Shown one piece after another: positions 4,021 to 30,392 of a stretch of DNA of 32,231 nt; the first letter of the stretch is position 1; each line of letters begins with the position of its first letter. The notes under the pieces are model-generated. The model was not told the DNA's origin and made no database searches. It saw nothing but the letters and a program-made list of their open reading frames with translations. This stretch comes from Archaeoglobales archaeon (GTDB lineage Archaea > Halobacteriota > Archaeoglobi > Archaeoglobales > Archaeoglobaceae): contig QMZC01000021.1 in NCBI GenBank assembly GCA_003662995.1, positions 1 to 32,231 on the forward strand, given 5' to 3'. The position numbers and the translations under genes are program-made.

Positions 4021-5127
4021 TTAGAACATCTTATCTAGCATGCTCACCTTCAAAGACTGTATTTCATCGAGGATCTCATCCAGCTCAGCAGTATCTTTTC
4101 CACTGCTCAAAGCCATCTTGCTCAACTCTTTGATTTCATTCTCAATAACTTTCAGCTTTGCCATGATCTCCTGAACTTCCGCTGGATCAATCTTGCTTTG
4201 TAATTTACTTGTGTAATCGTTGATTATATCCCTGTACTCCATCACCTTTCTCGCAAATGGGTCAACGACATCCATGATTACTGATCTAACAATTCTCACT
4301 TGCTCTGGAGAATCCCACATTATGTACTGGAGAACTCTTAGATCGTCAGTTGTTGCGACACTTCTAACGTGGAAGAATGCATGAGCTTTAACAACAGCTA
4401 TTGCTTGCTTGAAACGCCTATCGCTCACAATTATTCCGTTTTCTCTGAAATTTCTCCTCAGCTCAACTATGATTGGCAGTATGGGACTGATATCTACCTT
4501 AGCCACGTGTTCTTGCATTATTTTCAGCTCATCCTTTGTAATTCTAGTCTTCGGAGTGTACTCGTCATTTTTCTTTAGCATTTCTTCGAAATTCCCATCG
4601 TTCTTGATGTATTCCACAACGTACCTGATGAGTAACCTGTCGTAGAGTGCTGCCAGCTCCTTCTCATCCTCCGGCAGCTCGTTGCTCGCTGCAATGAGAG
4701 TGTTCAATGGTACTTTTACAATTCCGCCATCGTGATAAATTCTCTCATTGATTACTGACAGTAGAGAATTCAGAATCGCACTGTTGGCTTTGAATATCTC
4801 ATCTACAAATGCTATTTCAGCCTCTGGAAGTTTGTTTGCTGTGATGCGTTTGTACTCTCCCTTCTCCAACGCTGTCAAATCGATTGGGCCAAAGAGTTCT
4901 TCTGGCGCAGTGAACCTCGTAACAAGCCATTCGAAATATTTGGCATCAAAGTGAGAAGCTATAGCCCTCGCAATTGCGGACTTAGCAGTTCCAGGAGGAC
5001 CAAGGATATATACATGCTGTTTGCTCAAAACTGCCAGAATCAGGAGTTTTACAAGCTCTTCCCTCTCCTTAAAATATTCACACATCTCCAAAACGACATT
5101 CTGGAGTTTCCTACTCTCAACTCCCAT
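4021..5127 (-). CDS. MoxR-family AAA+ ATPase, 368 residues
   Basis: This is a typical MoxR/RavA-like AAA+ protein. Walker A is GPPGTAKS (residues 43-50), Walker B is IAFVDEIF (about 105-112), sensor 1 is N149 in AASNEL, and the YDR at 162-164 is in place for an arginine-finger or sensor role. A helical lid follows, and the C-terminus is coiled-coil-like (about 290-368). The ATG at 5127 sits behind GGAGGTG. MoxR ATPases act as hexameric remodelling machines with a VWA partner, and the partner is encoded at 819-2237. The two are separated by five small genes including HicAB, which is unusual, since these pairs are normally adjacent. Confidence 0.92.
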   Translation of the reverse strand: MGVESRKLQNVVLEMCEYFKEREELVKLLILAVLSKQHVYILGPPGTAKSAIARAIASHFDAKYFEWLVTRFTAPEELFGPIDLTALEKGEYKRITANKLPEAEIAFVDEIFKANSAILNSLLSVINERIYHDGGIVKVPLNTLIAASNELPEDEKELAALYDRLLIRYVVEYIKNDGNFEEMLKKNDEYTPKTRITKDELKIMQEHVAKVDISPILPIIVELRRNFRENGIIVSDRRFKQAIAVVKAHAFFHVRSVATTDDLRVLQYIMWDSPEQVRIVRSVIMDVVDPFARKVMEYRDIINDYTSKLQSKIDPAEVQEIMAKLKVIENEIKELSKMALSSGKDTAELDEILDEIQSLKVSMLDKMF

Positions 5128-5480: not shown

Positions 5481-6440
5481 TTAAGCAGTCGACTTAGCTT
5501 TAATTTCAACCTGTGAGTATTGTATCTGCCTTATTTTGTTTAGCAAACGCTCTGCTTTTTCGAGTAAGCTCGTCGTCCTGTTCAAGGACACTTTGAGCAT
5601 TTTAGTGTACTTCTCTGCCATTCTCGTCGCTTGCTCGATCTGCTTCGCAATTTCATCAACCTGCCTTACCTTGGAATCTTCAGAGTCAATTTTTAGCAGC
5701 CGTTCAATGGCCGAATTCAGAATCTCTTCTAAAGTATCCTCAACCTTTATCTCGAGCATTCTGCGGTGACGCGTTGTGTTTGCTATGGGAGCGTACCAGA
5801 TCTCTGTTCTGTTGCTAGGATCTATCTTCTTAATCTCCTCTACGATCTTGGAAAACCTCTCAATCCAGTAGAAATCATCGATAGGTACGAAGTATACTCC
5901 ACCGCTCGGCTTCAGCTTTACCCTATTGCAGCTGTCAAGGATTCTGTGGAGGATTTTTCTTACGTGCTCATCAGTATAGCAGTCCTTTTCCCTTTCAAAC
6001 CTGTCTAGAATTTCCTTCACAATATCTCTAACTACTGGATCTGCCGTTTTAAGGGAATAATTTACATTCCTGCTTTTCTCATCATATGCAATCTCTCCAA
6101 CAACATTGTAGCTCAACTTTTTGCCCTTCTTCCTCTTCTCCAGTACTATCTTCCTCGTAAGCCCTGTTTCCAGCGGTCTGAGCAGGAGGAACGTTTCAGA
6201 ATCTGCAAATTCGTCAATCTTCTTTTCTTTGTACTCAGAGCAAATCCGCTTGAAAGCATCGCCATGCTTTGGATCTACCGGTTTAAACCTCGAAAGTCCA
6301 TGCTTATCAAACCAAGCATGCAGCTTATCTTTATGCACAAGGGTTCTGCTAATCGTATACCAAACAGCATACCCTAACACATCTTTCTCATCATTCTCCA
6401 AAAATACAGCCTCAGATCCGCCAATTCTTAACCTCTGCAT
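5481..6440 (-). CDS. Unknown 319-residue protein, possibly DUF6744-like
   Basis: An ATG at 6440 is preceded by GAGGTGAT. The first 60 residues are compact, a central region (about 90-240) mixes strands and helices and includes PSGGVYFVPIDDFYWIERF, and the last 80 residues are a long Glu/Lys/Arg-rich coiled coil ending near the stop. The overall plan resembles proteins of archaeal mobile elements annotated as DUF6744, but I cannot confirm this. It overlaps the putative longer form of the following small gene and lies upstream of MoxR in the same direction, so it may provide a scaffold or substrate for that ATPase. Confidence 0.7.
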   Translation of the reverse strand: MQRLRIGGSEAVFLENDEKDVLGYAVWYTISRTLVHKDKLHAWFDKHGLSRFKPVDPKHGDAFKRICSEYKEKKIDEFADSETFLLLRPLETGLTRKIVLEKRKKGKKLSYNVVGEIAYDEKSRNVNYSLKTADPVVRDIVKEILDRFEREKDCYTDEHVRKILHRILDSCNRVKLKPSGGVYFVPIDDFYWIERFSKIVEEIKKIDPSNRTEIWYAPIANTTRHRRMLEIKVEDTLEEILNSAIERLLKIDSEDSKVRQVDEIAKQIEQATRMAEKYTKMLKVSLNRTTSLLEKAERLLNKIRQIQYSQVEIKAKSTA

Positions 6441-6511: not shown

Positions 6512-7288
6512 TTAGCAGAGTTTTAGATTGAAGGGGCAGATTCTTCTAATCTTTTTCCAGCTCTCTTCAATACCTTTATACAGTATTCTGTTACTTCTAT
6601 CGTTTGAGCAGATTGCACAGCTTCCGTCTGCGTCGATACTCATGCTGGCAATCCCTTGTCTACATCTTCCAATACCTGTTATTTCGGCAACACAAGCATC
6701 TACTGCGACTTTCAGGCCTTGCTGTTTAACAAGCTCTATCGCATCGAGCCATGATTCTTTATCTATCCTTTGAATTGGTTTGAGTGCTAACAGGGTAATC
6801 GTATTTGCATACTTCCCTAATACGTCCAAAGCTCGCTTGAGTTCTTCTTTTGTTGTGATAATGTGATTTATCCAAACTTCGGCGACCTCGCTATAGGTTT
6901 TAGCTGCTGTGATCAGACTTTCCGGACTTCTCCAAGTTTGTTCGTGAACTGAGTCAAAACTTATTGCATACTTGCTAACACCATCAATTGGCTTGCATAT
7001 CGCTCCGTTAGTTGTTATTGAAACGATCTTGCCGGATTCAGCTAAAAAATTGATGAAATCGCAAATGTTTGGATGCAGCATCGGTTCTCCACCGCCAATA
7101 GCAACGGCTTTAACCCTGCTTGCGGCAACATCTTCGATTATCTTTTTAACCAGCTCTGGATTTTCCTCGCCTTTATAGTAACATTTTCGGCAGTTCAGAT
7201 TGCACTTTTTGGTTATCGAGAGATGAACAACCGCTGGACACCTCTTAAGCTGTTTTTCAGAGATTTTGGCAATCATGCTACCATTCAT
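6512..7288 (-). CDS. Radical SAM protein with a C-terminal cysteine-rich (twitch/SPASM-like) region
   Basis: The CxxxCxxC motif that binds the SAM-cleaving [4Fe-4S] cluster is CNLNCRKC (C29, C33, C36), and GGGEP at 65-69 is the SAM-binding motif. The last 70 residues carry further cysteines (CVAEITGIGRC, then CAICSN and two near the end), which suggests a second cluster as in twitch or SPASM maturases. Such enzymes often modify peptides or proteins, but the substrate here is unknown. I chose the ATG at 7288 behind GGAGG; it overlaps the end of the upstream gene by 11 nt, so the two are probably coupled and may act together. Confidence 0.87.
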   Translation of the reverse strand: MNGSMIAKISEKQLKRCPAVVHLSITKKCNLNCRKCYYKGEENPELVKKIIEDVAASRVKAVAIGGGEPMLHPNICDFINFLAESGKIVSITTNGAICKPIDGVSKYAISFDSVHEQTWRSPESLITAAKTYSEVAEVWINHIITTKEELKRALDVLGKYANTITLLALKPIQRIDKESWLDAIELVKQQGLKVAVDACVAEITGIGRCRQGIASMSIDADGSCAICSNDRSNRILYKGIEESWKKIRRICPFNLKLC

Positions 7289-7967
7289 CGGTGAGGTCCT
7301 CCAGCTTAACTCCAAGCACCTTAGCAAGCCTCTGTAAATGTCTTCTATAGTTTCCTCTCATACTTGCATCGTCTCGATACCAGTCCTGATTTGAATAATC
7401 GACCGTCATGCTCCTGCCGTTCGCTATTATGTAATCGCTGCAGTTGTGATCTCCGAACTTACCCCATACCACTCCTATCTCCAGTACGAAGTCTCTGAAC
7501 GATGGATTACTCTTCAGCCTCTCTCTAATCATTTCGATAGCTTTTCTAACTCCAGTAAGTCCAACTGGGAGCTTTCCTCTTACAATTTTAACTTTCTTGC
7601 CGCTTACAGTTGTGCATACTTTTACAGTCTTTCTCTCGTAAGGAGAATCGTATTTGAAAGCCAAGCCCTCTACCTTGTGCTTCTTCGCGTAAGGGCCCTT
7701 TGCAACCTTTCCGTATTCCTCTTTCGTGATTGGAACAGCATAATAGTCCGACTCGTATTCTTCCTCACTAATGATTGTACTTCCCCTATCCTCTATAACC
7801 TCGTATTGTTCACCTATTGAGAGTCTTACAATGTTTATTGCTCTAACAACATCGCTTTCGCAAACTCTCAGCACATCTTCCAGCATCTTTTCTACAGCAT
7901 CATAATCGAGAATGTGAGGATCTGCAGTACAATCAACCACATTAAGATCAAGATAATAAATCCTCAT
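7278..7967 (-). CDS. Unknown 229-residue protein coupled to a radical SAM enzyme
   Basis: The ATG at 7967 follows GGTGATAG; a GTG nine bases earlier is less likely. The protein begins MRIYYLDLNVVDC, has an acidic, Tyr-rich middle (EEEYESDYY) and a C-terminal half with conserved-looking HNCSDYIIANGR and WYRDDASMRGNYRRH. I recognise no family. Its stop (TAG at 7278) lies inside the start region of the radical SAM gene, a strong sign that both are made from one message. It could be a partner or substrate of that enzyme. It is the first gene after a perfect palindrome at 8013-8033. Confidence 0.7.
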   Translation of the reverse strand: MRIYYLDLNVVDCTADPHILDYDAVEKMLEDVLRVCESDVVRAINIVRLSIGEQYEVIEDRGSTIISEEEYESDYYAVPITKEEYGKVAKGPYAKKHKVEGLAFKYDSPYERKTVKVCTTVSGKKVKIVRGKLPVGLTGVRKAIEMIRERLKSNPSFRDFVLEIGVVWGKFGDHNCSDYIIANGRSMTVDYSNQDWYRDDASMRGNYRRHLQRLAKVLGVKLEDLTDEW

Positions 7968-8012
7968 ATCTATCACCAGCTTACTTTTTTAGGTATTTTA
8001 TCTACCTATTTG

Positions 8013-8420: not shown

Positions 8421-8840
8421 TTAAATTTCAAACATCTGTATTATCTCTTGCGTCGTGTAAACTTTAACAACATCCTGCTCCTTTAACTTCCTATCATTCG
8501 ACCAAATTGCACAGTTCAATTTTAATGCGAGCGCAAAGTAAGGAGCGTCATCGGGATCTGGAGAAATATTTTTGGCTTTATCGTACTTATCTTCAAATTC
8601 TTCAAATGGAATTACCTCTATTTGCTCCTCCAGAAAATTCAAAACAACTTCTAATTCTTCTTGAGAAAGTTTAGCCTTTTCCAATATTTCGTCAAAATGC
8701 TCACGAATTTCGATGAACAGATACTCTGGAGCTATGAAACGAAATTTCCTCAGAATCTTGTTCGTTACAAAAACTCTGAATGTCCCTCCTCTGGCTATAA
8801 GAGCGGCAAATATTACATTAGCGTCGATCACCAGTAACAT
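8421..8840 (-). CDS. vapC: VapC-like PIN-domain ribonuclease toxin
   Basis: The product of 139 residues shows the PIN fold with the four acidic metal ligands in order: D6 in VIDANVIF, E44 in LFIEIREH, D98 in DPDDAPYFALAL, and D116 in SNDRKL. PIN toxins cleave RNA in a magnesium- or manganese-dependent way. The start is the ATG at 8840; a longer reading from 8861 has no support. It overlaps the antitoxin gene by 23 nt. It is close to the family's usual length and looks intact. The long, acidic middle (about 55-90) is typical of archaeal PIN proteins of the COG1569/COG4113 type. Confidence 0.85.
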   Translation of the reverse strand: MLLVIDANVIFAALIARGGTFRVFVTNKILRKFRFIAPEYLFIEIREHFDEILEKAKLSQEELEVVLNFLEEQIEVIPFEEFEDKYDKAKNISPDPDDAPYFALALKLNCAIWSNDRKLKEQDVVKVYTTQEIIQMFEI

Positions 8841-9057
8841 GTTTCCTAAACCTCTCAGCAATCGATTTACTGATTTTCTCGCCGAGTTCTAGAGCATCTT
8901 CTTCAGTCATCTTGCTCTTGGATACTATCCTCTCGATCTCGGTCAAATTTTGAATTTCCCTTTCAATCATTCTCCTTATCGCTGGTGACCAATCAACTCC
9001 GAACTTTTCCATCTTCCTCTTTAAGTCTTCGGGAATTTTAATTTTCAATTCAGCCAT
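8818..9057 (-). CDS. vapB: VapB-type antitoxin
   Basis: This 79-residue protein opens with an N-terminal ribbon-helix-helix-like sequence (LKIKIPEDLKRKMEKFG) and a helix WSPAIRRMIEREI, then a charged C-terminal tail that would wrap the PIN toxin. It lies just ahead of VapC and overlaps it, as toxin-antitoxin pairs do. GGAGGTG is about eleven bases before the ATG, slightly further than usual. The RHH part would bind the promoter and autoregulate the pair. Confidence 0.82.
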   Translation of the reverse strand: MAELKIKIPEDLKRKMEKFGVDWSPAIRRMIEREIQNLTEIERIVSKSKMTEEDALELGEKISKSIAERFRKHVTGDRR

Positions 9058-9099: not shown

Positions 9100-9549
9100 T
9101 TAGATCATGTCAGACCAGATCTCTTTAAGCGTATCTCTGACAGGATTAAGTAAAGGTGTTTGCATCTTTTCCTCATCAACCTCTATGACTTCCGCCTTTC
9201 CCTTTCTTTTGACGATCAAGACACTCTGAAGCTTTACTGCATCTATCTCGTGAATCATTACAACGTCTTCGACATCAGATTCAAGGATTGGAACTTTTAC
9301 TAACCGCCTCATTCTGCATGGGAAAACGACAATACAAGCTGTTGGTCTGTGTATTTTGATTATCTGTGGTAGAAGAAATGTGAACGTGAATTGCTTTGTT
9401 AAATTGTCTACGAATCCCAATCCTACTACCGCCTTTAGTTTGTCTCCATCGAGGAGGATTGCATGAGGAAAAGGCTCTTTCCCGGCTTCAAAATCCTTTC
9501 TAACAGACTCAACCACTCTATCAAATACCCTTTCAACTTGATCCTGCAT
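9100..9549 (-). CDS. Unknown 149-residue protein
   Basis: An ATG at 9549 follows GAGGTGATACT. The protein has a helical N-terminus (residues 1-22), a beta-rich core around residues 28-90 with KQFTFTFLLPQIIK and a further set of strands with DVVMIHEIDAV, and a helical tail. It recalls hypothetical proteins of archaeal viruses and plasmids, but I cannot name a family. No membrane segment or signal is visible. Confidence 0.65.
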   Translation of the reverse strand: MQDQVERVFDRVVESVRKDFEAGKEPFPHAILLDGDKLKAVVGLGFVDNLTKQFTFTFLLPQIIKIHRPTACIVVFPCRMRRLVKVPILESDVEDVVMIHEIDAVKLQSVLIVKRKGKAEVIEVDEEKMQTPLLNPVRDTLKEIWSDMI

Positions 9550-9586: not shown

Positions 9587-10171
9587 CTAAGAATAGCGGA
9601 TCCAGACTTCGTCCCAGCTTCCCGGCCCTAAAACCGGATGCGGCAAGGCAATTGTTGTTATGCCCTTAGCTTTAGCATACCTTGTTAGATCTGCAATTTC
9701 CCTAGCGAGCTGCATTCCCTCTGAATTGTGCCCGTTAACACCATTGTAGGATGGTACAGCGAGTTTTGTGATTTTGGTTCTAACACTCTCAAGTCCTTCG
9801 ATCAAGTCTTTTACAATTGATGCTTCGCCAGCGTTAAAGTCACCAATGAAGAGGGTTATCTCACCATTACAGCTAATGATCCACCATGTGCTGTGAAGTC
9901 TGTTGATCTGCCTGCCAGCAATCCTACCCACTTCTCTTGGCGTTAGAGCTTTAACTGTTATCTTGGCACTTTTGCTTGGTTTAAAGACTATTGGCTTTCC
10001 ATCTGCTATTATTGGCTTGACATGCTTGACGTTCGGCCTGTCAGCCCAATACTTGTGGATGATCACCGCATTTGTGATATTCTCAGGAATGTGGTCGGCG
10101 TGGCTGTGGCTTATGACTGTTAGAAATGGTGTAATTGTGGACGGAGACCTCCAAACATCTAGTTGCAGCAT
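9587..10171 (-). CDS. Metallo-beta-lactamase-fold hydrolase
   Basis: The motif SHSHADH gives the metal ligands H22, H24, D26 and H27. Later signs of the fold are IGDFNAG, whose aspartate would bridge two metals, and a C-terminal ALPHPVLG histidine. At about 195 residues it is short for the family, without the extra beta-CASP domain of RNase J-like enzymes, so it is closer to UlaG-like or small hydrolases. The ATG at 10171 sits behind GGGGGA, and I prefer it to a TTG five codons earlier. The substrate is unknown; a phosphodiester or lactone bond would be usual. Confidence 0.8.
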   Translation of the reverse strand: MLQLDVWRSPSTITPFLTVISHSHADHIPENITNAVIIHKYWADRPNVKHVKPIIADGKPIVFKPSKSAKITVKALTPREVGRIAGRQINRLHSTWWIISCNGEITLFIGDFNAGEASIVKDLIEGLESVRTKITKLAVPSYNGVNGHNSEGMQLAREIADLTRYAKAKGITTIALPHPVLGPGSWDEVWIRYS

Positions 10172-10187
10172 TTTAATTTCCCCCAAA

Positions 10188-10612: not shown

Positions 10613-10858
10613 TCAAATTTCTAGTTCAATTTCTCCTGCCGCGATTGGGCGCATTAGTAATTTCCCTTCGTGGAATTCTCTCATAATCTTGTCTATTTTC
10701 TTGGAAATTTCTGGCGTGAAGTATGATTCTCCACACTCCTCACAGATGAAAGCCGGAACGTCCTTAATTACAACTACCCTGTTTCCAACTCTTGCAACAA
10801 ATTCTGTTTTACCTTCATGTAATTTTCCATTACACAAACTACATCTATCTGGCTTCAT
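10613..10858 (-). CDS. MqsA/YgiT-type zinc-finger antitoxin
   Basis: The 81-residue product has the two CxxC knuckles of the YgiT/MqsA N-terminal zinc domain: CSLC (residues 6-9) and CEEC (39-42), with the conserved FICEECGESYFTPE after it. The C-terminal helix-turn-helix DNA-binding domain of MqsA is absent; only a short tail is present, as in many archaeal versions. The ATG overlaps the stop of the DUF4258 gene as ATGA and follows AGGAG. This order, toxin first and antitoxin second, is normal for MqsRA-like pairs. Confidence 0.85.
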   Translation of the reverse strand: MKPDRCSLCNGKLHEGKTEFVARVGNRVVVIKDVPAFICEECGESYFTPEISKKIDKIMREFHEGKLLMRPIAAGEIELEI

Positions 10859-11178
10859 ACATTTCTCCTCCTAATTCTATAATCTATCCACTTTTCTTCT
10901 TTTGGTTTGTAAACTGTAATAATTCTTACGTGATCTTCACACTCTGCAATAACAACATGGTATGGGGCATCTTTCAAATATCCCAAAACTAGAGCTGATG
11001 GGCAAGGTTTATCGTCTGCATACTCTTCAATTATTTCTCCATCTATAATAACCCTTTTAATGTCGTCCGTAGATGTATTTCGTTGAAACATTCTAACTCT
11101 TGCGTGGTTAGAAATTATAAAGTTATCTTCTTCAATAAGTCTCTTGATTCGTTTAAAGTTGATCGCTTTCCTTTCCAT
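10855..11178 (-). CDS. DUF4258 protein, probable RelE-superfamily toxin
   Basis: The conserved HARVRMFQRN with the helix SNHARVRM, then IIDGEIIEEYADD and HVVIAECEDHVRIITVY, are hallmarks of DUF4258, which belongs to the RelE/MqsR-like ribonuclease fold. It is encoded with a YgiT-type antitoxin, as is normal for the family. The ATG at 11178 follows GGGAG; a TTG at 11193 would add five residues. Its start overlaps the end of a third small gene by 26 nt. The toxin looks full length. Confidence 0.83.
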   Translation of the reverse strand: MERKAINFKRIKRLIEEDNFIISNHARVRMFQRNTSTDDIKRVIIDGEIIEEYADDKPCPSALVLGYLKDAPYHVVIAECEDHVRIITVYKPKEEKWIDYRIRRRNV

Positions 11179-11371
11179 ATTCCACACTCCCAAGAATAGT
11201 TATAATGCTGCTCCTGAGCGCAAATACTGATAAGAAACCCTCATACGTTGGATATTCTGACAATTCTCCTCTTTCAATTTTTCTCTCTATTTTTTCCAGC
11301 TCTTTCACACCATACTTTGAGAGTACCTTTTCGAACTTCTTTTTCTGCTCTAGTATTTCTTCAATAACCAT
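11153..11371 (-). CDS. Unknown 72-residue protein at the head of a toxin-antitoxin unit
   Basis: An ATG at 11371 follows GGTAGG and opens a Glu/Lys-rich coiled helix (EEILEQKKKFEKVLSKYG) with a C-terminal half PTYEGFLSVFALRSSI. It overlaps the DUF4258 gene by 26 nt, so it is likely to be translated together with it. I know no family for it. A third partner, an extra antitoxin or a regulator, is possible. Confidence 0.6.
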   Translation of the reverse strand: MVIEEILEQKKKFEKVLSKYGVKELEKIERKIERGELSEYPTYEGFLSVFALRSSIITILGSVEYGKESDQL

Positions 11372-11549: not shown

Positions 11550-11849
11550 TCACCTGTTCCTTTCCAGCCGAATTAGATCTCCTACTTTAAAGCTCAGCAG
11601 GTGGCTACTGACGATAACGGCAGCATGAAGCTCCGAATCATAGACAGCAATTATTGGAAAGTTGTAGAAATACTTCCGCATGATTATGCAGTAAAGCCAC
11701 GCTGGACCTTCGCCGCTTATTACGAGCGTGTTTCCACTTAATACAGGAAGTTGCTTTTCAACTTTAGATATGTCAGCCTGTTTTGTAGATTCCTTCATCT
11801 CAAATTCTAAAACGAGTCCAGTAAATACTCCTGCTTTAAACTTTTTCAC
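11550..11849 (-). CDS. csx3: Csx3-like protein (CRISPR ring-nuclease family), stand-alone
   Basis: The 99-residue product matches the Csx3 (Crn3) fold: VLSGNTLVISGEGPAWLYC, then FPIIAVYDSELHAAVIVSSH and FKVGDLIRLE at the end. Csx3 proteins in Archaeoglobus (AF1864) cut or bind the cyclic oligoadenylate messengers of type III CRISPR. Here the aspartate of the canonical YDPRL is kept (D71), but its arginine is replaced by E73, and the histidines that normally follow WLY are replaced by Arg, Tyr and Phe. A binding-only role or a changed activity is therefore possible. No cas genes or CRISPR array occur in the window. The start is GTG at 11849. Confidence 0.82.
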   Translation of the reverse strand: MKKFKAGVFTGLVLEFEMKESTKQADISKVEKQLPVLSGNTLVISGEGPAWLYCIIMRKYFYNFPIIAVYDSELHAAVIVSSHLLSFKVGDLIRLERNR

Positions 11850-11958
11850 ATTGCATACGAGCTTAACCGTAATACCACCCCAAATCTCAATTTGTTTAGC
11901 TCAAACAATTCAACAAAACCACATACAGACAACTACCTCATCACTCCACACAACCCGC

Positions 11959-15711: not shown

Positions 15712-16623
15712 GTGAGCGATTTTGATATGCTGCCCCATCATTCAGTTCTTAGAGATGCGGGCTACAAAACTGTTGGTGAGGTGGCGGAAGAGGGCACTCA
15801 CGAGCTCTCTGTAAGAACAGGGTTGACGAGAGAAACTGCAGCAGAAATCATTTCTAAAGCCAGAAGAATTGCTTACGCTTCAGAGTTCAAAAGATTGGAA
15901 TCCTATCTTAAGGCAAGGGAGTCTGTGGAGAGAATAAGTACTGGTAGCAGGAGTTTTGATGAGCTGCTTGGCGGTGGAGTTGAAGTAAGGGCGATTACCG
16001 AGTTCTTCGGAGAGAGCTCATCAGGTAAGAGTCAGCTCTGCTTCCAGCTTGCTGTCAACGTTCAGCTTCCTAAAGATAAGGGTGGGCTAGAGGGGGCAGT
16101 TATTTTCATAGATACCGAGGGAACTCTAAGACCTGAGCGTATACTGCAGATGGCAGCTGCTAAAGGACTGGGAAGAGATGTTTTGAGTAACATCTACGCT
16201 GCCCAAGCCTACACAACTGAGAAACAGATCAGACTGCTCGAATCGGTGTTTGAGCTTGCAGAAAGACTAAACGTGAGGCTCTTGATCGTTGACTCTCTGA
16301 CAGCAAACTTCAGAAGGGAATTTGCTGGAAGGGCTGCAATGCAGAACAGGAGCAAAAAGCTGAACGAGTTCATGGAAATACTTAGGAAGTTTATCAGAAA
16401 ATTCGATGCCGCTGCTGTGGTCACAAATCAAATTTCTGCAGAAGTGGATGCCCTAACACCTGCGGTAAGAGCTGTTGGCGGAAACATAGTTGCCCATAGC
16501 TCAACCTACAGCGTGTTGCTAAGAAAGGCCAGAGCGGATCTGCGAATAGCCAAGCTGGTGGATGCACCTCATTTGCCTGAGGCTGAAGTAACATTCAGGA
16601 TAACTGAGGAAGGAATCTGCTAA
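15712..16623 (+). CDS. radA: RadA-like recombinase, 303 residues
   Basis: The N-terminal helix-hairpin-helix domain (DAGYKTVGEVAE, then GLTRETAAEIISKARR) precedes a RecA core with DELLGGGVE, Walker A GESSSGKS (100-107), Walker B LLIVDSLTANF and the L2-like region ending with AHSSTYSVLLRKA. RadA forms filaments for strand exchange. The P-loop differs from the usual GEFGSGKT, and the protein is about 20-30 residues shorter than chromosomal RadA. It starts with a GTG four bases after the Orc1 stop, so the two form an operon. A paralogue carried by the element for recombination-dependent replication is a reasonable inference. Confidence 0.9.
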   Translation: MSDFDMLPHHSVLRDAGYKTVGEVAEEGTHELSVRTGLTRETAAEIISKARRIAYASEFKRLESYLKARESVERISTGSRSFDELLGGGVEVRAITEFFGESSSGKSQLCFQLAVNVQLPKDKGGLEGAVIFIDTEGTLRPERILQMAAAKGLGRDVLSNIYAAQAYTTEKQIRLLESVFELAERLNVRLLIVDSLTANFRREFAGRAAMQNRSKKLNEFMEILRKFIRKFDAAAVVTNQISAEVDALTPAVRAVGGNIVAHSSTYSVLLRKARADLRIAKLVDAPHLPEAEVTFRITEEGIC

Positions 16624-28158: not shown

Positions 28159-29352
28159 ATGTATAAAGTAGACAAATACATACGCAATAACCTAGAGAAT
28201 ATCAAAAAAAGATCAATCAGAGAGTTACCAAGCCATAGAAGACTTTTTGAGCGACTTGATTGCTGAAGGAATTTCAATTTACAGAGTTTACACATACTCA
28301 TGCTGGTTGAAGAGAATTAACATAATAAGAAATAACAGAGTGGGATAAAAGAGATATCAAAGCTATCCCCAATCATTACATTCTTTTGGTGAATTCGGGA
28401 AAATTGTCAGATAATTCATTTGAAAAGTTAAGAAGACTCTCAAGAAATTCTTTAAATGGCTTGGAAAGGGGGAACTCCTAAACTGGCTTTCGCTTAAAAA
28501 CATTAGCAGCAAGGTTATGTCCCAAGATCTCATCACAAAAGAGGAATCTGAGGCGATGCTAAAAACATGCATGAATTCAAGGGATAGGGCTTTGATATCC
28601 CTGCTTTATGAGTCAAGGGCGAGAATTGGTGAAATTGGTTTAGTGAGAATAAAGGATGTTTCATTCGATGAATATGGAGCGATAGTATGGTTGCCAAAGA
28701 GCAAAACAGTTACAAGGAAGCTCAGAGTAGTTTATTCGGCAAGGTATCTTTCAGAATGGCTTTCTGACCATCCTCTAAAGAATCCAGAATCTTCACTTTG
28801 GATAAAACTGAGTGGTAGAAACGCATTTAAAGGAATGGACTACGATGACATCAGAATACAAATAAAGAAGATTGCAAAAAGAGCAGGAATAAAGAAGAGG
28901 ATTTATCCTCGCTTGTTCAGGCACACAAGGGCTACAAGACTACTTTCAAGAGTTTCCGAATCGATTAGAGCTAAGTATATGGGCTGGGTTAACGGTAGCA
29001 AGATGGTTGGTGTTTACGTGCATTTAGCAAGCGAGAATGTGGATGAGGCAATTTTGAAAATGCATGGCATCAAAACAAACGGTAATGGAAAAGATTTAGA
29101 AGTTAAGCAGTGTCCCGCTGCTTGATGGTAAATCCCGCAACATCAAGATTCTGCTCAAGATGCGGTTTACCATTAACAGAGGAGGCTATCCGGGAAGTCG
29201 AGGAGTGTGAGAAGAGGAAGATTGAAGCTTTAAATGAGCTGACAAATCCACAATTTATCAAAATCTTCATGGGGATGCAGAAGGAGATTGAAATGCTGAA
29301 GGCTGAAATTGAAAGGATGAGGAATGAAAGAAGTGGAGGAGAAGCTAAATGA
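28159..29352 (+). pseudogene. Broken archaeal tyrosine integrase with a zinc ribbon
   Basis: From the ATG at 28159 the protein can be followed through frame changes near 28222, 28335 and 28430: MYKVDKYIRNNLENIKKRSI, then YQAIEDFLSDLIAEGISIYR, EITEWDKRDIK, KTLKKFFKWLGKGELLNWLS and the intact catalytic part from 28517. That part has RARIGEI (first Arg), PRLFRHTRAT (the HxxR box with His changed to Arg) and VGVYVHL (nucleophile Tyr). Another single-base loss near 29108 hides the C-terminal zinc ribbon (CPRC and CSRC when corrected). The recombinase would have moved an archaeal element. Single-base shifts at short runs could include sequencing errors, but the His-to-Arg change supports decay. Confidence 0.85.
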
Positions 29353-30392
29353 AGTACTTGCGATAGGATGAAATACTTTTCAAGGACAAAACCGTGTTTG
29401 ATCCTGGCTATTTACCAGAAACATTACTCCATCGAGAAAGGCAGCTTACAGCTTTGGCAGCAAATCTAAGGCCAGCTTTAAGGAGCTCAACTCCAATGCA
29501 CACCCTTTCATTCGGCCCGCCAGCAACAGGCAAAACTTCAGCCATGAGAACAATTCTGAATGAGATAAGTGATTACGCCTACACAGCATACATCCGCTGC
29601 CCTTTAGCAAGATCAGCGTACAAGGTTATGGCAAGGATATTCGAATGTGTTTGCAGGCATCAACCTTCGCAAACTGGAATATCGATAGCAAGGCTCTACG
29701 ATTCGATATGCTAGGAGCTTGCTGATGATGGAAAAGTTCTAATCGTTGCCTTGGATGACTTCAACTTTCTAGATGACGAAGCAGCTAACGACATCCTTTA
29801 CGCTCTTTTAAAGGCCCATGAAGAATATGCGGTTAAAATTGGAATTGTTGCAGCAACAACTGAAGGGGTTATGCTGGACATGGAGACGGGAGCAATCTAT
29901 TTTCCTCTTTATGATGAGGAAGAAATTGTAGACATATTAAGGCAGAGAGTTAAACTTGGCTTTTTTGAAGGAGTAATGGCGAATGAAGCATTCGATAGAA
30001 TTGTTGAGCTTACTGCAAAGGTGTGTGATTTAAGGTTTAGCATCTATTTATTAAGAATGTCAGGAATTGAGGCTGAAAGAAGAGCGAGCAGAAAAGTTGA
30101 GGTGGAGCTAAGGTTTTTCTGGCAAAGAGCATATCTGCATTAAATTTAGATGAAAGAGAAACTCTCAAAATCATTTACTCCATCAGAGGAGATGTAAACT
30201 CAGGAGATGTTTTCAAAAATTCTCAAAGCAGAAGTTAACATGAGCTATACTCGCTTTTACGAAATCATAAACAAGCTTGAAAGATTAAGGCTGATTGACG
30301 TTGTAATAGGAAGAAAGGGAAGAGGAATGACGAGATACATCATAAAGAAGTATGATAATAGTGCGATGCTGAAGGCTTTGAGTGAGTTTTAA
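29349..30392 (+). pseudogene. cdc6: Orc1/Cdc6 pseudogene, second copy
   Basis: From ATG 29349, overlapping the integrase stop as ATGA, the frame reads MKYLR, TAG, DEILFKDKTVFDPGYLPETL and Walker A GPPATGKT, then DSIC, a second TAG, and ELADDGKVLIVALDDFNFLD with Walker B. Around 30140 the frame changes (ALNLDERETLKIIYSIRGDV), and again at a run of A near 30215, where ILKAEVNMSYTRFYEIINKL and the winged helix follow. Two nonsense codons and two shifts make it non-functional. It belongs to the same decayed element as the integrase and is different from the intact copy at 14541. Confidence 0.85.

What the first reader, a model, noticed from the sequence alone, without database searches (positions are those of the whole stretch)
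11550..11849. Stand-alone Csx3-like protein with altered catalytic positions: candidate anti-CRISPR
Csx3 degrades the cyclic tetra-adenylate signal of type III CRISPR. Here it is encoded on a mobile element without cas genes. The aspartate of YDPRL is kept, but the arginine is Glu and the histidines after WLY are replaced. It may bind the messenger without cutting it (a sponge), recognise a different one, or be a faster-evolving antagonist. Viral ring nucleases that block type III CRISPR are a known precedent in another family.
Basis: partly seen in the sequence, partly recalled or inferred. Interest (0 to 1): 0.78.

Follow-up and report, generated by a model that had tools for sequence, protein, structure and literature searches.

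The report
Mobile-element Csx3 without its catalytic residues
A mobile DNA element in an Archaeoglobus-like archaeon carries a relative of Csx3, the enzyme that destroys the alarm molecule of type III CRISPR; the residues needed for cutting, and several that touch the molecule, have been replaced in the same way in every close copy found, so it probably works as a non-cutting binder or blocker, perhaps against the host's CRISPR immunity.

Summary
The ORF at 11849-11550 (-) is a true Csx3 relative (Pfam Csx3 E=1.7e-16; AlphaFold model pLDDT 92.6; best PDB matches are all A. fulgidus Csx3/Crn3). The 32 kb contig is a mobile element with no recognised cas gene. It is one of four variant copies (YD[PS]EL: Glu for Arg71, Arg for His57, His60 lost), sister to two copies with Lys71. 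All six come from Archaeoglobales; where the neighbourhood can be read they share element genes. All 28 other aligned Csx3s keep Arg71 and His60. Pairwise dN/dS within the Glu71 set is 0.08-0.30, so it is not a decaying gene. Asp69 and His80 are kept, but cA4-contact positions 22, 46, 49 and 71 are altered too, which weakens a simple cA4 sponge. The host genome has three Cas10s with GGDD and Csx1/Csm6-type effectors, so cA4-type signalling is plausible. No CRISPR spacer against the element was found, and Cas10 co-occurrence is not above background. Anti-CRISPR action is therefore plausible but undemonstrated. By-product: a 90 kb tailed phage carries a catalytically intact Csx3 away from cas genes, apparently unreported.

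The parts
11550..11849 (-). Csx3/Crn3-fold protein, Glu71 variant (99 aa as called from GTG). Asp69 and His80 kept; R71E, H57R, H60 lost (+1 insertion), R46E, I49A, I22T
11850..11881 (-). Upstream stretch with an SD-like GGGGTGGT. The ATG of homologues in L009, L010 and L012 aligns with ACG here (11870-11868), so the start codon is uncertain
   Evidence: DNA alignment
11153..11371 (-). 72-aa protein next downstream, also found in the elements of G017
10855..11193 (-). DUF4258 / BrnT-like putative toxin
9587..10186 (-). 199-aa protein conserved in the elements (83% identical in L009/L010; distant relatives in L011 and L013)
9100..9549 (-). 149-aa protein conserved in the elements (82-93% in L009/L010, 39% in L013)
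8421..8861 (-). PIN-domain protein (likely a toxin-antitoxin partner of 8818-9057)
7278..7976 (-). 232-aa protein of unknown family, 88-90% identical in two elements of G017
6512..7327 (-). Radical SAM protein
5481..6440 (-). DUF6744 protein; lies directly next to the csx3 variant in L011 and L013
4021..5127 (-). MoxR AAA+ ATPase (bpMoxR; PHROG 19600), 79% identical in L013
819..2237 (-). VWA-domain protein (CoxE-like; PHROG 24053), 73% identical in L013; a distant relative lies beside an ATPase gene in Moorella phage MTATph1
14541..15707 (+). Orc1/Cdc6-type initiator
15712..16623 (+). Rad51/RadA paralogue
28517..29125 (+). Tyrosine recombinase (integrase) of the element

Best explanation
A mobile-element branch of the Csx3/Crn3 family has kept the fold but lost the catalytic machinery of the cA4 ring nuclease. 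Shown by sequence and model: homology and fold; a monophyletic set of four Glu71 copies next to two Lys71 copies; co-ordinated replacement of His57, His60 and Arg71; retention of Asp69 and His80; low dN/dS; a place in a conserved element gene block. Inferred from published mutants: it does not cleave cA4 by the canonical Mn-dependent mechanism. Inferred, and my commitment: it is an antagonist of the host's type III CRISPR signalling that acts without cutting, by sequestering a cyclic oligoadenylate (or close relative) between stacked dimers, as H60A Csx3 and Csx15 do. The acidic Glu71 on one face and Arg57 (and Arg61 in three copies) on the other suggest that the two faces still meet, with the charges redistributed.
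For: Csx3 profile and fold. Four Glu71 copies group at 98/87 and all six element copies at 92/89, with the active-site columns left out. dN/dS 0.08-0.30 within the Glu71 set. Among positions at least 80% conserved in canonical Csx3, 5 of 9 ligand/catalytic positions are replaced in all four copies against 2 of 15 others (p=0.06). No cas genes in the window. Host has three Cas10s with GGDD, a Csx1 (CARF+HEPN) and a Csm6-type effector. Published: H60A Csx3 cannot cut, was crystallised with cA4 in a filament and turns colloidal with cA4 (PMC7371418); Csx15 sequesters cA4 in head-to-tail filaments and relieves type III immunity in vivo (PMC13148439). A tailed phage carries an intact Csx3, so the family is used by mobile elements.
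Against: Arg46 and Arg71, whose side chains contact cA4, are Glu/Lys and Glu, and Ile22 and Ile49 are replaced too, so cA4 affinity may be lost. PMC13148439 argues that type III systems make too much messenger for sponging to pay. No spacer from the host's 51-repeat array matches the window or the related element pieces. Cas10 hits occur in 26 of 55 family genomes overall, so 3 of 4 element-bearing genomes is no enrichment; the Cas10 candidate of G011 has no GGDD motif in its palm region. The gene heads a block with DUF6744/MoxR/VWA, which hints at a role in the element's own biology.
Confidence: 0.4

Rival explanations
1. Re-purposed Csx3 fold: ligand binding has been lost, and the protein is a small self-assembling or partner-binding component of the element's own conserved gene block (DUF6744, MoxR, VWA), for example an adaptor or regulator, with the opposite charges at 57 and 71 replacing the nucleotide as the glue between dimers.
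For: Contact positions 22, 46, 49 and 71 are all altered. The gene lies directly next to DUF6744 in L011 and L013, with MoxR and VWA following in L013. Csx3 has been listed as a domain combined with MoxR-vWA conflict systems in cyanobacteria (PMC7159879). No enrichment with Cas10.
Against: Asp69 and His80, both at the ligand site, are invariant in all six copies. In the window many genes lie between csx3 and DUF6744, so adjacency is not strict.
Confidence: 0.3
2. Still a nuclease with a rearranged site: Asp69 and Glu71 bind the metal, Arg57 takes over the phosphate-holding role of Arg71, and the preferred ring size or product is different.
For: Asp69, Glu71 and His80 are invariant in the Glu71 set, and Arg57 is fixed. 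The pattern reads like a swap of acidic and basic roles between the two faces.
Against: H60A is completely inactive and R71A strongly reduced in AfCsx3 (PMC7371418). No second metal-binding His cluster appears in the variant.
Confidence: 0.13
3. Ordinary cargo in decay: a Csx3 picked up from a cas locus and drifting towards loss.
For: The start codon of the homologues is ACG in the window copy, and the window copy has extra private changes (Ser70, Glu46).
Against: Pairwise dN/dS 0.08-0.16 between the window copy and its closest relatives; intact frames in all six copies; the same substitutions recur across two genera.
Confidence: 0.06
4. It acts by mixing into and poisoning a canonical host Csx3 assembly (dominant negative).
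For: Csx3 works only as a dimer-of-dimers sandwich (PMC7371418).
Against: G000 and G017 carry no canonical Csx3, and poisoning a ring nuclease would strengthen, not weaken, CRISPR.
Confidence: 0.03

Closest known systems
Csx3/Crn3 cA4 ring nuclease (A. fulgidus AF_1864; PDB 3WZG, 6YUD)
   Same: Profile match, 33-35% identity, same fold (Foldseek E 1.4e-6, TM 0.72), Asp69, His80, Gly45, Pro48 and Trp50 kept
   Different: Arg71 to Glu, His57 to Arg, His60 lost, contact positions 22/46/49 altered, not in a cas locus, carried by a mobile element
AcrIII-1 (DUF1874) viral ring nuclease
   Same: Possible role: mobile-element antagonist of cA4 signalling
   Different: Unrelated fold; AcrIII-1 is a fast enzyme, whereas this protein lacks the catalytic residues of its family
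Csx15 cA4-sequestering protein
   Same: Proposed mode: head-to-tail dimers sandwiching a cyclic nucleotide without (fast) cleavage (PMC13148439)
   Different: Different family, located in type III loci, not found in phage genomes; binding here is untested
CARF domain of Cat1 (cA4-bound filament, 9MUE/9MUD)
   Same: Next best fold match after Csx3 (TM 0.67); binds cA4 between stacked dimers with no detectable ring nuclease activity (PMC12162218)
   Different: Fused to a TIR NADase; a defence effector
Acb2 / Tad-type phage sponges
   Same: Mobile-element proteins that neutralise nucleotide messengers by binding
   Different: Unrelated families; for this protein binding is only a hypothesis

Membership tests
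Csx3/Crn3 | Sequence profile of the family | tested here: met
   PF09620 E=1.7e-16 (60.2 vs 21 bits); TIGR02579 56.3 vs 55.4 bits
Csx3/Crn3 | Csx3 fold | tested here: met
   AlphaFold pLDDT 92.6; top 13 PDB matches are all AfCsx3 entries
Csx3/Crn3 | Catalytic Asp69 | tested here: met
   YDSEL; invariant in all six element copies
Csx3/Crn3 | Arg71 (phosphate contact, reported absolutely conserved) | tested here: not met
   Glu in four copies, Lys in two, Arg in all 28 others aligned
Csx3/Crn3 | His57/His60 putative metal site | tested here: not met
   Arg at 57; no His at 60, with a one-residue insertion
Csx3/Crn3 | His80 | tested here: met
   SSH kept
Csx3/Crn3 | cA4-contact positions Ile22, Ser44, Gly45, Arg46, Ile49 | tested here: not met
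   Ser44 and Gly45 kept; Thr22, Glu46, Ala49
Csx3/Crn3 | Linkage to a type III CRISPR locus | tested here: not met
   No cas genes in the 32 kb; the host's cas10 genes lie on other contigs
Csx3/Crn3 | Mn-dependent cleavage of cA4 | not testable with these tools
   Needs purified protein; published single mutants predict loss (PMC7371418)
Anti-CRISPR (type III) | Encoded by a mobile element | tested here: met
   Integrase, Cdc6, RadA paralogue and a conserved element gene block
Anti-CRISPR (type III) | Host has the targeted cyclase-active system | tested here: met
   Three Cas10 with GGDD plus Csx1/Csm6-type effectors in G000; not enriched over family background
Anti-CRISPR (type III) | Element is targeted by type III spacers | tested here: inconclusive
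   No match in 50 spacers of the host array; family scan scored only 5 candidates per genome
Anti-CRISPR (type III) | Inhibits type III immunity | not testable with these tools
   Plasmid-challenge assay needed
AcrIII-1 (DUF1874) | DUF1874 profile | tested here: not met
   The only Pfam match is Cas_csx3

The most novel reading that the evidence does not exclude
A counter-defence lineage derived from Csx3 in which the active-site charges have been redistributed between the two stacking faces (Arg71 to Glu; His57 to Arg), so that it captures a different type III or CBASS messenger, or assembles without any ligand, and blocks signalling without catalysis.
Probability: 0.2. Interest if true: 0.78.

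Novelty: new variant of a known kind. Interest (0 to 1): 0.55.

Why it matters
Csx3 has been regarded as a cellular off-switch inside type III loci; a 2025 survey that included Crn3 models listed only AcrIII-1, Csx20 and Csx16 among ring nucleases in 28,114 phage genomes (PMC12409355). Here the family appears on mobile elements in two forms: a set with the catalytic residues replaced in Archaeoglobales elements, and an intact copy in a tailed phage. If the first is a non-cutting antagonist, it would test whether sequestration can work against type III signalling, which is currently doubted (PMC13148439). The natural Lys71 to Glu71 series is a ready-made set of variants for dissecting ring-nuclease chemistry.

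Tried and rejected
Searches for the variant in INPHARED phages and PLSDB plasmids found nothing. A single-sequence scan of IMG/VR and of genome contigs found nothing; only alignment queries did. Fifty spacers from the host array matched the element pieces no better than shuffled controls. Seven short matches from the family-wide DNA search were inspected and none lay in a repeat array. Poisoning of a host Csx3 was rejected because G000 and G017 have no canonical copy. Chance similarity was rejected on E-values and fold. A viral-fold search gave no significant match. YN00 dN/dS failed for several pairs, so NG86 values were used; synonymous sites are near saturation against the window copy.

Full report
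OBSERVATION. The ORF 11849-11550 on the minus strand encodes 99 aa from a GTG. It matches Pfam Cas_csx3 at E=1.7e-16 and that is the only Pfam family found; it passes the NCBIfam Crn3/Csx3 equivalog cut-off narrowly, 56.3 against 55.4 bits; and it matches the solved A. fulgidus Csx3 chains at about 2e-10. An AlphaFold2 model built with 20 relatives has mean pLDDT 92.6, and its thirteen best PDB matches are all AfCsx3 entries (TM about 0.6-0.7), followed by the cA4-binding filament effector Cat1. The similarity is real.

ACTIVE SITE. In AfCsx3, H60A and D69A are dead and R71A and H80A strongly reduced; cA4 is contacted by I22, S44, G45, R46, I49, R71 and H80, and H57/H60 are the likely Mn ligands (PMC7371418). 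In a 35-row alignment the window protein keeps S44, G45, D69 and H80 but has T22, E46, A49, R57, no His at 60 (there is a one-residue insertion between 57 and 69) and E71. Three other copies (two contigs of G017, one of G026) share R57, E71, the loss of His60 and the insertion, with K46. Two further copies (G017 contig C154; G011) share the insertion but have K71, R46, I49 and H57, with a His that may stand in for His60. All 28 remaining rows have R71 and H60; 25 of 28 have H57.

EVOLUTION. With the active-site columns removed, the four Glu71 copies form a supported group (98/87), the two Lys71 copies another (96/93), and all six fall together (92/89) apart from the Cmr-linked Archaeoglobaceae copies (bootstraps had not fully settled). 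Pairwise dN/dS (NG86) is 0.08-0.16 between the window and the other Glu71 copies and 0.13-0.30 among those. Synonymous sites are near saturation against the window copy, so the exact values are rough, but the protein is clearly conserved. Of positions at least 80% conserved in canonical Csx3, five of nine ligand/catalytic ones are replaced in all four Glu71 copies against two of fifteen others (Fisher p=0.06): change is concentrated at the active site while the fold core is kept, though this test is only marginal. The window copy has ACG where the three close homologues have ATG, so either the internal GTG or a non-standard start is used.

SURROUNDINGS. The window is the whole of contig C21 of a 2.6 Mb, 187-contig genome. 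It carries an integrase, Orc1/Cdc6 genes, a RadA paralogue, toxin-antitoxin genes, a GmrSD restriction enzyme and an SMC-like ATPase, and no recognised cas gene other than the csx3 itself. The csx3 variant heads a leftward gene series; many of its members recur in contigs of G017 at 80-93% identity and in G011 at 40-79%, including DUF6744, MoxR and VWA. In G017:C154 and in G011 the csx3 variant lies immediately beside DUF6744. MoxR and VWA match phage families, and an ATPase-VWA pair is found in Moorella phage MTATph1. Genome identities: G033 encodes the AF_1864 sequence and is therefore A. fulgidus; G011 has the length I remember for Ferroglobus placidus (from memory, not tested); the G017 and G026 contigs correspond to records titled Archaeoglobales archaeon.

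HOST. G000 has Cas10 genes on three contigs, each with a GGDD motif, a Csx1 with CARF and HEPN domains, a Csm6-type effector and CARF proteins of APE2256 and NE0113 type. The window's is the only Csx3 in that genome. G017 has two Cas10s with GGDD. G011's Cas10 candidate lacks GGDD in its palm region, and none was found in G026, which is 76% complete. Across the family, 26 of 55 genomes have a Cas10 hit at E<=1e-3, so co-occurrence proves nothing.

TESTS OF THE ANTI-CRISPR IDEA. Fifty spacers from the host's array showed no match to the window or the related element pieces better than shuffled controls. Short matches from a family-wide search with 20 kb of the window did not lie in repeat arrays, but that search scored only five candidates per genome. 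These results neither support nor exclude targeting.

MECHANISM. Published mutants make canonical cA4 cleavage very unlikely. Precedents for a non-cutting sandwich exist: H60A Csx3 with cA4 forms filaments in the crystal and a colloid in solution (PMC7371418); Csx15 sequesters cA4 and relieves type III immunity in vivo (PMC13148439); Cat1 binds cA4 between stacked CARF dimers with no detectable ring nuclease activity (PMC12162218). I therefore commit to non-catalytic antagonism of type III signalling at 0.4. The chief objection is that R46, R71, I22 and I49 are lost, so cA4 itself may not be the ligand, or no ligand may bind. The main rival (0.3) is re-purposing within the element's DUF6744/MoxR/VWA block.

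BY-PRODUCT. IMG/VR contig 3300028908_000006 (90 kb) encodes a 111-aa Csx3 with every catalytic residue intact, between a primase and a UvsX-like recombinase gene. The same contig has a terminase large subunit, portal, tape-measure and minor tail genes, and no cas homologue was found in the 16 kb around the gene. Its model matches AfCsx3 at TM about 0.92. It was the only IMG/VR match in three scans, and the 28,114-genome phage survey named no Crn3 (PMC12409355).

Noticed in passing
L046:9956-10291 (IMG/VR UViG 3300028908_000006, 90,338 bp): A catalytically intact canonical Csx3 in a tailed phage (terminase, portal, tape measure present), with no cas homologue in the surrounding 16 kb; a candidate Csx3-type viral ring nuclease.
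   Followed up: partly
window:21068-25538: SMC-like ATPase (best PADLOC match LmuB), a weak Hjc-like nuclease and a GmrSD-type restriction enzyme side by side: a possible defence island carried by the element.
   Followed up: no
L014:9643-10579 and L010:8574-9385: A gene that looks like a minimal nucleotidyltransferase (by eye) directly follows csx3 both in a canonical Cmr locus (G035, with a HepT-like partner) and in an element with the Glu71 variant (G017).
   Followed up: no
window:819-2237 and 4021-5127: MoxR-VWA pair conserved at 73-79% in the element of G011 and distantly related to an ATPase-VWA pair in Moorella phage MTATph1.
   Followed up: partly
L126:3901-7278 (G011): Cas10 candidate of 1126 aa without a GGDD motif in its palm region, possibly a cyclase-dead type III subtype.
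   Followed up: no
L026:754-1677 (G068): A Csx3 domain fused C-terminally to an ATPase-like region in another member of the family, the reverse order of the cyanobacterial Csx3-AAA proteins.
   Followed up: no
window:14541-15707 and 29394-30143: Two Cdc6-like genes in one contig, the second split over two short ORFs.
   Followed up: no
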